Assembly: GCA_021234155.1 (NCBI GenBank)
Contig: JAJEKV010000005.1
Location: 10,164,572 to 10,228,571, forward strand
Source: Isoetes taiwanensis
Lineage: Eukaryota; Streptophyta; Lycopodiopsida; Isoetales; Isoetaceae
DNA: 64,000 nt
Direction: 5' to 3'
Under the pieces are notes generated by a model. The model was not told the origin of the DNA. It ran no database searches and worked only from the letters and a program-made list of their open reading frames with translations. This document shows positions 47,446 to 49,370 of this stretch, piece after piece; within the stretch, counting starts at the first letter, position 1; each line of letters starts with the position of its first letter. The position numbers and the translations under genes are program-made.

Positions 47446-49370
47446 ATGATGGCCCGCACAAAACAGACTGCTCGGAAGCCTCGTGGGAGCGAATCCTCCA
47501 GCGCCAGCGGTTCTGGCCTCTTTCAGAGAGTCCTTCAAGAACGCCTTTTCCGGGAAGGCGAATCCTCTTCGGTTTAAGATGCGAGTGGTCGGATCCGGGC
47601 GACCACACGGAGATCATAGGCGACGGCCGCCGGACATCATGCATCAAATCCTAGAGGAGATCGTGATGGAGGAGGAGAGGACCAGGAGCAACGGGAGCCG
47701 ACGGGGCAGCCAATAGTTGAAGAGCAGACTCGGACCGAGACCCACCTACTGGGAAGAACGGGGAGAGAAAAACGGCTGACGCCCGACTCTTAGCCCCCAG
47801 AAGAAGCAGATCTTGGCGCCGCTTCATCGCCAAGTATGAAGCCGAGAGAGCCACGGAGCAGAGAACTAAGAACAGGGAAGACGACCCAACCATCGCCGAC
47901 GAGCCAAAGAAGAGGAAGGCCAAAGCCATTAAAGCAAAAGCGGGGATAGGTTCAATACGCTGTGACGCTTTATACCTGGAATACGATGAATTGTATGATC
48001 TGGCACAAATTTGTCAGATAAAAACGCAAAAATACTCACAAAAAAACAATTCGGGCTGTCGGAAGATTTTCGCAGACGCGAAAAAAAACAACTATATCAG
48101 CGACGACGAAAAATTTTTCGTCTGTGAAAACCTTCAGAATCGCCGCACGCCGAAAACCAAAATTTTTCGCAGACGCCGAAAACAACGCCACAACAGACGC
48201 TGACTTTTTCGCGACGCGATTTAGTTGTACAGACGCGAAAATCTTCCGCCGGAATTGTTTTTGCCGTGATTTTTTGCCGTATTTTTTTTTGAACACCGCT
48301 ACCGCTTTGGCGCTGACGCCGAATGAACCGATAGCGTCTGTGAAAAAAATTTTCGCGACGCTATCATAAGCTTTTCTGCACGCCGAATGTCGCCTGTCCT
48401 TTCGCGCCGCGATTCTTTCTATTTCGCGTACGCGAAAAAATTTTCGCGTACGCTTTCACGAAGGTTTCGCGTACGCGAAGATTTTTTTTTCCGGCCGGCG
48501 AGGTATTTATACGTTAAATACGTATTTTATTAAAAAATACGTATTTTTTAACTTTATACGTCAGAAATTTTAATTTTGTACGTATAGAACCTATCCCTGA
48601 AAGCAGGCAAGAGAAAGGTTGTGAAGGTCGGGAAGCGAGCGGTAGGGCCCGTCATCAACGAACCATCAGGCGAAGAGACCCCGCCCTCTACCGATTGGGG
48701 ACGAGGATTACGTCCCCAACACGTAGGGGGCGAAGTTCTTTCAAAACCCCCGCCCGTGGAGAAGGAAGTCCCCGAGCAGGTGGCAGAGGAACAAGACCAG
48801 TCCGGGCAGGCGCCGAAGCCCCCACCTTTTCCGACGTGGGATAGGGTTAAAGCCCCGCGACCACAAAGGGAGGCGTATGTGATAGACCCGATCAAGGTCT
48901 ATCAGAAGAGGATCAGAGAGCACAACGCTTACATGGAGAAATGGGAGGCGTATAACGCTTATTATCAGGAGCACAGGGTTAGAGCGATCGAAGGCGGACA
49001 CCCGACAAGAAGCCAGACCTTGAAGCCGCCGCCACCAAAGCCCAAGCCTCCCAGAGCACCAGGAAAGAAGCGGGCCGGCAGGAAAAAGTCGGAGGACAGA
49101 GCCCTCAAGGAGATCCGGCATTTCCAGAAGAGTTACGGACTCTTGATCCCCCGGGCACCATTTCAACGATTGGTTCGCGAGGTCATGCAGGAGTACAACA
49201 CAGACATGCGCGTGACAGATGAGATGTTGTTGTGCTTACAGGAGGCAGCAGAAGCAAAAATAGTGCAGCATTTCGAGGATTCGACGGCCTGCACAGTGCA
49301 CGCGAAGAGGGTTACCCTCATGAGGCAGGATATGTATCTTGCCAGGCACATCAAGGGAGAATGCCCTTGA
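47446..49370 (+). pseudogene. histone H3-like cargo gene of the Ty3 element (broken by indels and a TIR insertion)
   Basis: The ATG at 47446/47449 opens with MARTKQTARKPRGSESSS: the first ten residues are those of canonical H3 (A1 to K9 conserved, P at position 10). A long low-complexity, charged linker follows, with frame changes (stops near 47572 and 47714), then a 655-bp TIR element (47943-48597). The downstream frame (48600-49370, no Met) has a Pro/Lys-rich linker with a helical segment (IKVYQKRIREHNAYMEKWEA) and ends in a complete H3 fold: ALKEIRHFQKS (alpha-N), LLIPRAPFQRLVREV (alpha-1), NTDMRVTDEMLLCLQEAAEA (loop 1/alpha-2), HFEDSTACTVHAKRVTLMRQ and DMYLARHIKGE (alpha-3). LLIPRAPF and VTLMRxDxxLAR resemble plant CENH3, while loop 1 has the length of ordinary H3. 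Without the insertion the product would be about 420 residues. It lies between primer binding site and gag, so it belongs to the element. Confidence 0.85.
47943..48597. mobile_element. non-autonomous TIR element, GGGATAGG family, copy 2
   Basis: Begins GGGATAGGTTCAATACGC and ends GTATAGAACCTATCCC. It aligns along its length with the element at 13894-14485 (shared TGAATTGTATGATCTGGCAC-like and TCGGAAGATTTTCG phrases, GACGCGA-rich core, TACGTATTTTATTAAAAAAT-like 3' part). It interrupts the linker of the H3-like frame between KAIKAKA and KAGKRKV. The flanks AAAGCAAAAG and AAAGCAGG hint at a target duplication. Confidence 0.8.

What the first reader, a model, noticed from the sequence alone, without database searches (positions are those of the whole stretch)
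47446..49370. An LTR retrotransposon carrying a histone H3-like (CENH3-flavoured) gene
Seen: between the primer binding site (46791) and gag (50083) of a complete Ty3 element lies a frame opening with MARTKQTARK, the canonical H3 tail. It ends with a full H3 histone fold (EIRHFQKS, LLIPRAPFQRLVRE, CLQEAAEA, HFED, HAKRVTLMRQD, LARHIKGE). The long linker between tail and fold is unlike any standard H3. Known: H3 genes are host genes, and standard Ty3 elements encode only gag and pol, with occasional extra ORFs. Inference: the lineage captured and reshaped an H3/CENH3 gene and kept it as cargo, perhaps to alter chromatin at its own copies.
Basis: partly seen in the sequence, partly recalled or inferred. 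Interest (0 to 1): 0.97.

Follow-up and report, generated by a model that had tools for sequence, protein, structure and literature searches.

The report
Retrotransposon carrying its own histone H3
A family of jumping genes in what looks like a quillwort genome carries its own version of histone H3, a protein that packages DNA, in many copies kept under strong selection, which suggests the element uses it to act on its host's chromatin.

Summary
The window copy is a decayed Ty3 chromovirus. Between primer binding site and gag it has a MARTKQTARK tail and a full H3 fold (PF00125, E 7e-28), split by frameshifts and a MITE-like insert that the intact copies lack. Its genome (1.658 Gb, fitting Isoetes taiwanensis) gave 147 scored matches, this copy included. 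Thirteen of 30 fetched loci have an intact frame of 398-422 aa: H3 tail, NLS-like stretch, H3 fold.

The usual order is LTR, PBS, H3, gag, pol. Of 136 scored gag copies, 51 have a listed H3 681-751 bp upstream; all 4 of the others that I could fetch also have H3 sequence there, one weakly. Selection is stronger on fold (dN/dS 0.03) and tail (0.04) than on gag (0.22, 3 copies). H3 and gag sit behind similar palindrome/TATA/leader modules. A second H3-fusion family exists (92 scored matches); the one flank read has gag and pol.

Most likely: an element-encoded nuclear H3 variant that joins nucleosomes and hinders host silencing or marks element chromatin. Anatomy and selection are shown; deposition and function are inferred. 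CENH3 ancestry is unresolved. My literature searches showed no retroelement-encoded histone.

The parts
45116..45120 (+). target-site duplication CCCAT, left copy (right copy 57855-57859)
   Evidence: sequence read directly
45121..46789 (+). 5' LTR, 1669 bp, TGTGAC...GTCACA; no TATAAA[TAG] or TATATAA match
   Evidence: K2P to 3' LTR 0.0465
46791..46802 (+). primer binding site TGGTATCAAAGC (tRNA-Met type, recalled)
   Evidence: read directly; motif in 10 of 12 copies
46997..47263 (+). two 67-bp near-palindromes 200 bp apart upstream of the H3 gene (46997-47063, 47197-47263)
   Evidence: RNA folding z -7.1 and -7.2
47339..47448 (+). TATAAAT box (47339) and leader of the H3 gene, similar to the gag leader
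   Evidence: local score 54 vs shuffle mean 30.8, 0 of 2000
47449..47574 (+). H3 gene, first piece: MARTKQTARK tail and start of linker; stop at 47575 in this copy
47943..48597 (.). MITE-like insert with terminal inverted repeat GGGATAGGTTC, absent from the 13 intact H3 copies; a related copy at 13894-14485
48612..49370 (+). H3 gene, last piece: linker, predicted long helix (about 48888-48992), H3 fold 49098-49367, stop 49368-49370
49516..49780 (+). second pair of 67-bp near-palindromes, upstream of gag (49516-49582, 49714-49780)
   Evidence: RNA folding z -8.8 and -5.7
49961..50082 (+). TATAAAT box (49961) and leader of gag
50083..51900 (+). gag region; Retrotrans_gag PF03732 in 51039-51293; broken, with about 1.3 kb missing after 50874 relative to 9 of 12 copies
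51901..54207 (+). pol frame: protease, RT, RNase H
53771..54754 (+). integrase piece in another frame, ends at in-frame TAG 54752-54754
54755..55414 (+). integrase C-terminus and chromodomain (PF00385 E 5.7e-9)
56173..56185 (+). polypurine tract AAGGTGGGGAGAA
   Evidence: read directly
56186..57854 (+). 3' LTR

Best explanation
This is a decayed copy of a high-copy Ty3 chromovirus family whose usual gene order is LTR, PBS, histone H3 variant, gag, pol with chromodomain, LTR. The H3 gene is a stable part of the element. Intact copies encode 398-422 aa: the first ten residues of histone H3 (K4 and K9 kept, S10 replaced by proline), a faster-evolving linker with an NLS-like basic stretch (PKKRKAK), a predicted helix and a collinear H3 fold. 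Shown: the anatomy, its recurrence over copies, the similar promoter-like modules in front of H3 and gag, and strong purifying selection on tail and fold. Inferred: the protein is made from its own internal promoter, enters the nucleus, pairs with host H4 and is placed in nucleosomes. There a tail lacking most H3 modification sites but keeping K4 and K9, and a fold changed at R63/K64/L65 (DNA contacts, recalled) and in loop 1, weakens or redirects host silencing in the element's favour. Which step it acts on (silencing of copies, chromatin of new cDNA, or target-site marking read by the integrase chromodomain) is open.
For: 147 scored H3 matches, this copy included, of 11672 candidates. 13 of 30 fetched loci have tail and fold in one intact frame, 11 of those 13 with exact MARTKQTARK and 2 with one change. 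In 12 longer stretches taken from these 13, LTR lies upstream in 11 and gag and RT downstream in 10; 3' LTR in 6 of 8 downstream stretches. Anchored on gag instead: 51 of 136 scored gag copies have a listed H3 681-751 bp upstream, and 4 of 4 others that could be fetched (16 of 85 had been drawn) have H3 sequence there, one weakly. dN/dS: fold 0.032, tail 0.042, pre-fold 0.137, linker 0.212 in 13 copies; gag 0.216 in 3 copies; gag-anchored folds 0.110, 0.052, 0.038. C110, H113, K115, R116, T118, D123, L126, I130 unchanged in 30 of 30 folds. H3 and gag leaders more alike than any of 2000 shuffles. A second H3-fusion family, 92 scored matches of 12733 candidates; its one flank examined has gag and pol downstream, pol 70% identical in DNA to this one over 2794 bp; fold dN/dS 0.036 in 3 copies.
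Against: No RNA or protein data. The fetched loci were the top-scoring ones at protein level, which lowers dN/dS; the gag-anchored control is only 3 folds, one with a stop. Sixteen of 30 loci (the window's own among them) have no tail in the fold's frame and one more (L020) has an altered tail, so many copies are dead. The tail ratio rests on 11 codons and on copies chosen for an open frame. AlphaFold gives low confidence over the fold as a monomer (mean pLDDT 60; best PDB fold match a nucleosome entry but only TM 0.22 on the query). Nothing shows that the protein enters nucleosomes; selection would also fit a decoy or a role in the particle.
Confidence: 0.6

Rival explanations
1. Decoy or mimic: the protein does not enter nucleosomes in quantity but binds H3 chaperones, H4 or K4/K9 enzymes through its conserved tail and fold, starving the silencing machinery.
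For: Tail and fold conserved, middle freer to change; K4 and K9 kept while the rest of the H3 tail is lost.
Against: Residues recalled to contact DNA (R69, R72, R83, K115, R116, T118) are kept in 29 or 30 of 30 loci, which a pure chaperone or H4 decoy need not keep.
Confidence: 0.2
2. Structural role in the replication cycle: the H3 variant coats or compacts element RNA/cDNA in the particle or loads onto unintegrated cDNA.
For: The gene sits next to gag behind a similar promoter-like module; chromatin loads on incoming retroviral DNA (recalled).
Against: An H3 tail with K4/K9 and an NLS-like stretch point to nuclear chromatin; in intact copies H3 ends with its own stop and about 0.7 kb of spacer separates it from gag.
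Confidence: 0.1
3. Passenger capture: a host H3 gene was picked up and amplified with the element and has no function.
For: Host genes are known to be transduced by plant LTR elements (PMC7264820, passages).
Against: dN/dS 0.03-0.04 on the fold with pS about 0.36, intact frames in 13 of 30, H3 upstream of 51 of 136 gag copies by lists alone and of 4 of 4 others checked, and a second H3-carrying family.
Confidence: 0.03
4. Centromere hijack: the gene derives from CENH3 and targets the protein, and through the chromodomain integrase the element, to centromeres.
For: CENH3-like LLIPxAPF, EIRHFQK, CTVHAKRVTLM stretches; 6 of 22 diagnostic sites match CENH3; a clade with plant CENH3 is not rejected (p-AU 0.251, 0.186).
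Against: No loop-1 insertion, which the 5 CENH3/CENP-A sequences used here have (4 of them recalled); 6 of 22 sites match H3; H3-type MARTKQTARK tail; nearest rows by tree path outside the family are H3-type proteins.
Confidence: 0.1

Closest known systems
Plant Ty3 chromoviruses (Galadriel, Tekay, Reina, CRM, Tcn1 clades)
   Same: LTR, tRNA-Met-type PBS (recalled), gag, PR-RT-RH-IN order and an integrase chromodomain; pol region 50-57% identical to PITA (recalled as Pinus taeda) and Cucumis melo proteins at 90-100% coverage
   Different: An H3-variant gene with its own promoter-like module between PBS and gag. Clade within the chromoviruses was not tested.
Orchid Ty3 elements with an ALKBH5-like m6A demethylase ORF (PMC9289625, passages and section 12)
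   Same: A host-type gene acquired by a Ty3 lineage and kept in many copies
   Different: An enzyme, not a histone. The section on its screen of 121 angiosperm genomes reports 15 extra domains that passed its filter; none of those it describes is a histone domain; its figures and supplements were not seen.
Extra ORFs of Ogre, Athila, Retand, SIRE elements (PMC6317226, PMC7264820, PMC11963269, passages)
   Same: Extra gene beside gag-pol
   Different: The frequent domains named there are plant mobile domain, Transposase_28 and Athila ORF1; 'histone' occurs 0 times in two of the main texts and once in the third, about chromodomain targets. Supplementary tables could not be read.
Bracovirus histone H4 CpBV-H4 (PMC5423620, start of abstract in a search listing; PMC9145170, passages)
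   Same: A mobile or viral genome carrying a core histone that joins host nucleosomes and changes host gene expression through its tail
   Different: H4 of a DNA virus acting in insects; here H3 in a plant retrotransposon, and joining of nucleosomes not shown.
Plant CENH3 (P0097, Quercus)
   Same: Several fold stretches (LIPxAPF, RHFQK, CTVHAKRVTLM)
   Different: No loop-1 insertion, H3-type tail, no tree support

Membership tests
Ty3 chromovirus | paired LTRs with 5-bp target-site duplication | tested here: met
   1669-bp LTRs, CCCAT on both sides
Ty3 chromovirus | PR-RT-RH-IN order with C-terminal chromodomain | tested here: met
   Pfam RVP_2, RVT_1, RT_RNaseH, Integrase_H2C2, rve, Chromo in this order, over three open frames
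Ty3 chromovirus | named clade by RT/IN phylogeny | not tested
   no reference set was built
Core histone H3 | H3 fold above family cut-off, collinear with canonical H3 | tested here: met
   PF00125 97.7 bits vs cut-off 26.4; no gap over 90 residues, 49 identical
Core histone H3 | H3 N-terminal tail | tested here: met
   first 10 residues exact in 11 of 13 intact copies; the rest of the canonical tail is not kept
Core histone H3 | assembles with H4 into nucleosomes | not testable with these tools
   residues recalled as dimer and DNA contacts kept in 29-30 of 30 loci
CENH3 | longer loop 1 | tested here: not met
   0 extra residues, against 1 in Quercus CENH3 and 2 in recalled Arabidopsis and rice CENH3
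CENH3 | groups with CENH3 in a tree | tested here: inconclusive
   best tree places it elsewhere; AU test does not reject (0.251; 0.186)
CENH3 | centromere localisation | not testable with these tools
   none

The most novel reading that the evidence does not exclude
A self-contained mark-and-reader system: the element encodes both an H3 variant with a methylatable K9 tail that cannot be phosphorylated at position 10 and an integrase with a chromodomain. By placing its own H3 on chosen DNA it would write the chromatin that its integrase then reads, and hold its copies in a state the host cannot silence or fully erase.
Probability: 0.12. Interest if true: 0.97.

Novelty: new variant of a known kind. 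Interest (0 to 1): 0.93.

Why it matters
Histone H3 is among the most conserved host proteins. Here a high-copy retroelement family carries a divergent H3 whose fold evolution has kept at dN/dS about 0.03, which means the element has used a histone for a long time. It gives a direct way to ask whether transposons attack or rewrite chromatin by supplying nucleosome parts, not only by recruiting or evading host factors. It also warns that histone counts and CENH3 searches in such genomes will pick up element copies: a CENH3 query here returned many element-type long frames beside ordinary H3.

Tried and rejected
CENH3 origin: not shown, not excluded. Common origin with the long-linker H3 proteins of unnamed ENA contigs: C91 is in 215 of 215 ENA folds (217 folds extracted from 239 proteins, two of them not ENA) and in 30 of 30 loci here; the window shares 5 of 14 ENA-majority states (P 0.0005), but only 2 of 11 (P 0.107) with the H129 subgroup once positions 53 and 90 are left out; a tree joins them weakly (51/96; 63/96). 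Against it: the linkers show no homology (hhalign probability 0.1), L060 has A91, and the ENA proteins were fetched by similarity to queries with C91. Left open. One capture for the window family and family 2: a clade is rejected at p-AU 0.017, though the window family is on a long branch. Collection scans gave no relatives: IMG/VR with the window protein, a window motif and the ENA family, GTDB with the ENA family only. A neutral simulation on the single window fold gave moderate support (BLOSUM P 0.005; no stop P 0.10; share of conservative changes P 0.09) and was replaced by dN/dS over copies. Structure models: the fold is poorly predicted as a monomer; the ENA family model is unusable (mean pLDDT 39.7). 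PADLOC: no match. NCBIfam: only a sub-threshold archaeal-histone match, E 0.059. Rfam at gathering scores: none.

Full report
What was checked. The frame at 47446 reads MMARTKQTARKPRGSESSS... up to a stop at 47575, and the frame 48588-49370 ends in an H3 fold. The fold matches PF00125 with 97.7 bits against a cut-off of 26.4 and solved H3 chains at E 1.9e-28. Over H3 positions 46-135 it is collinear with canonical plant H3 without a gap, 49 of 90 identical.

The element. LTRs are 45121-46789 and 56186-57854, with CCCAT on both sides, PBS TGGTATCAAAGC at 46791, gag from 50083, PR-RT-RH-IN and a chromodomain. LTR K2P distance is 0.0465 for this copy and 0.040-0.073 for the six others measured. 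This copy is dead: frame changes and stops in the H3 gene, gag and pol, among them a TAG at 54752, and about 1.3 kb of gag missing relative to 9 of 12 other copies; 2 of the other 3 show no gag in the stretch and 1 shows only part. By inspection the chromodomain lacks the first and third aromatic cage residues, as described for CHD_II in PMC3350952 (passages); this was not tested by alignment.

The host. G000 has 1,658,258,908 bases in 1110 contigs. Isoetes taiwanensis is reported as 1658.30 Mb in 204 scaffolds and 909 unplaced contigs (PMC8566536, passages). 'Histone' has 0 occurrences in that paper's main text.

Copies of the gene. The H3 query has 147 scored matches, the window's own included, 75-100% identical, out of 11672 candidates, so a lower bound. 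Of the 30 loci returned, 14 have a tail-like start in the fold's frame; one of these (L020) has an altered tail and was dropped, leaving 13 intact frames of 398-422 aa. The tail is MARTKQTARK in 11 and MARTKQTTRK in 2; residue 10 is proline in all 13. Linkers carry PKKRKAK or close variants, read here as an NLS by recall.

Selection. Pooled Nei-Gojobori ratios for the 13 copies: tail (11 codons) 0.042, linker 0.212, pre-fold region 0.137, fold 0.032, all 0.147, with pS 0.23-0.36; fold in all 30 loci 0.037. The first 265 codons of gag, in the 3 of 12 longer copies where the script found a frame over 200 aa, give 0.216. These loci were ranked by protein similarity over the fold and the C-terminal linker, which lowers dN; the tail was outside the query, but the 13 were chosen for an open frame. 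As a partial control, folds found through gag give 0.110 (L060, which has a stop), 0.052 (L062) and 0.038 (L059, 52 codons) against L002; the fourth, L061, matches in two pieces only and was not included. Eight residues recalled as dyad, dimer or four-helix-bundle positions (C110, H113, K115, R116, T118, D123, L126, I130) are unchanged in 30 of 30, and R69, R72, R83 in 29, 30 and 29 of 30; K56 is K in 20 and R in 10; R63 is P, F84 is V and A91 is C in all 30.

Constancy of order. In 12 longer stretches taken from the 13 intact loci, LTR sequence lies upstream in 11, gag downstream in 10, RT in 10; a 3' LTR was found in 6 of 8 downstream stretches; the PBS motif in 10 of 12. Starting from gag: 136 scored copies of 11654 candidates; 51 have an H3 from the scored H3 list 681-751 bp upstream on the same strand, median 718.

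A shared promoter-like module. Two 67-bp near-palindromes 200 bp apart precede H3, and two precede gag; a 22-base core with up to 3 mismatches occurs four times in the window and not once in 100 shuffles. As RNA they fold at z -5.7 to -8.8. Downstream, TATAAAT at 47339 and 49961 begins two leaders that share CCCATTTC, AGGCGATCTT and GGCGCTT in order; local score 54 against a shuffle mean of 30.8 (0 of 2000) and a window background of 23.1 (0 of 2000). The same TATA patterns have no match in the LTRs. TATAAAT is present before H3 in 12 of 12 copies and at the gag place in 9 of 12. I read this as separate transcription of H3 and gag; it is not shown.

A second family. Searching the genome with a Quercus CENH3 gave 150 scored matches of 7980 candidates, many in open frames of 420-567 aa. 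Three fetched ones encode a protein of 409-419 aa with another N-terminal domain, no MARTK tail, and a near-canonical fold, 76 of 90 identical to host H3 for L051. The flank of one shows, downstream, a frame that is gag-like by eye, a 187-bp match to this element's gag and a pol frame 70% identical in DNA over 2794 bp, and short LTR similarity upstream. Its own search gives 92 scored matches of 12733 candidates; fold dN/dS 0.036, N-terminal part 0.188, three copies. So more than one element family of this genome appears to carry an H3; only one flank of family 2 was read.

Relatives outside. Of the 120 best protein matches to the fold 118 come from unnamed ENA contigs; many have long N-terminal extensions, one (P0010) with a MARTKQTARK tail. 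Their organism, copy number and flanks are unknown to me. Their linker is not homologous to this one.

Ancestry. At 22 sites that separate the plant H3 and CENH3 sequences used, the window fold has 6 CENH3 states, 6 H3 states and 10 others. The family is a 100/100 clade on a branch of about 1.0 change per site. A clade with plant CENH3 is not rejected (p-AU 0.186), one with family 2 is (0.017), and one with ENA proteins is in the best tree with weak support (63/96). Origin from H3 or CENH3 is therefore open.

Literature. Searches listed no paper that, by title, start of abstract or the passages I opened, reports a retroelement-encoded core histone; six exact phrases such as 'retrotransposon-encoded histone' gave 0 papers. 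The library holds open-licence PMC papers only, and supplementary tables could not be read, so an entry in such a table cannot be excluded. Nearest precedents are in Closest known systems.

Mechanism. Conserved tail, conserved fold, freer linker and an NLS-like stretch are what one expects of a histone variant that must bind H4 and DNA and present K4/K9. The loss of S10 and of the rest of the tail, and the changed R63-L65 and loop 1, would give an unusual nucleosome. I put most weight on nucleosome incorporation that hinders or redirects silencing (0.6), less on a decoy (0.2), a particle or cDNA role (0.1) and centromere targeting (0.1); these overlap, so the odds need not sum to one.

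Noticed in passing
G000 C1045:18447280-18460900 (L058, L051, L057); L052, L053: A second family of H3-fusion frames (409-419 aa, new N-terminal domain, near-canonical H3 fold; 92 scored matches); the one flank read has gag and pol downstream, in an element related to the window's.
   Followed up: partly
P0010, P0121-P0239 (proteins of unnamed ENA contigs): More than a hundred distinct long-linker H3 proteins, most of 360-410 aa, with an H3 tail, a conserved middle region and an H3 fold, in unnamed ENA contigs; perhaps another mobile H3 family. 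The 8000 matches of that search are a cap and include ordinary H3.
   Followed up: partly
46997-47063, 47197-47263, 49516-49582, 49714-49780: Four 67-bp near-palindromes, two before H3 and two before gag, at 200-bp spacing.
   Followed up: partly
13894-14485 and 47943-48597: Two related copies of a MITE-like element with terminal repeat GGGATAGGTTC.
   Followed up: no
44424-44920: Cluster of direct and inverted repeats with the palindrome CTCGACTCGCGAGTCGAG just left of the element.
   Followed up: no
P0125: Nymphaea thermarum gene model 'histone H3-2' of 444 aa is a run of H3 copies and fragments in one frame, perhaps a model artefact.
   Followed up: no
L061 (G000 C1028:11918131-11918481): A gag copy whose upstream H3 is only 47 and 60% identical in two pieces: an old or divergent H3 copy.
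   Followed up: no
59509-60165: Open minus-strand frame of 218 aa with a CxxC...H...C pattern, LINE-like by eye; no Pfam match at E 0.1 or NCBIfam match at E 1.
   Followed up: partly
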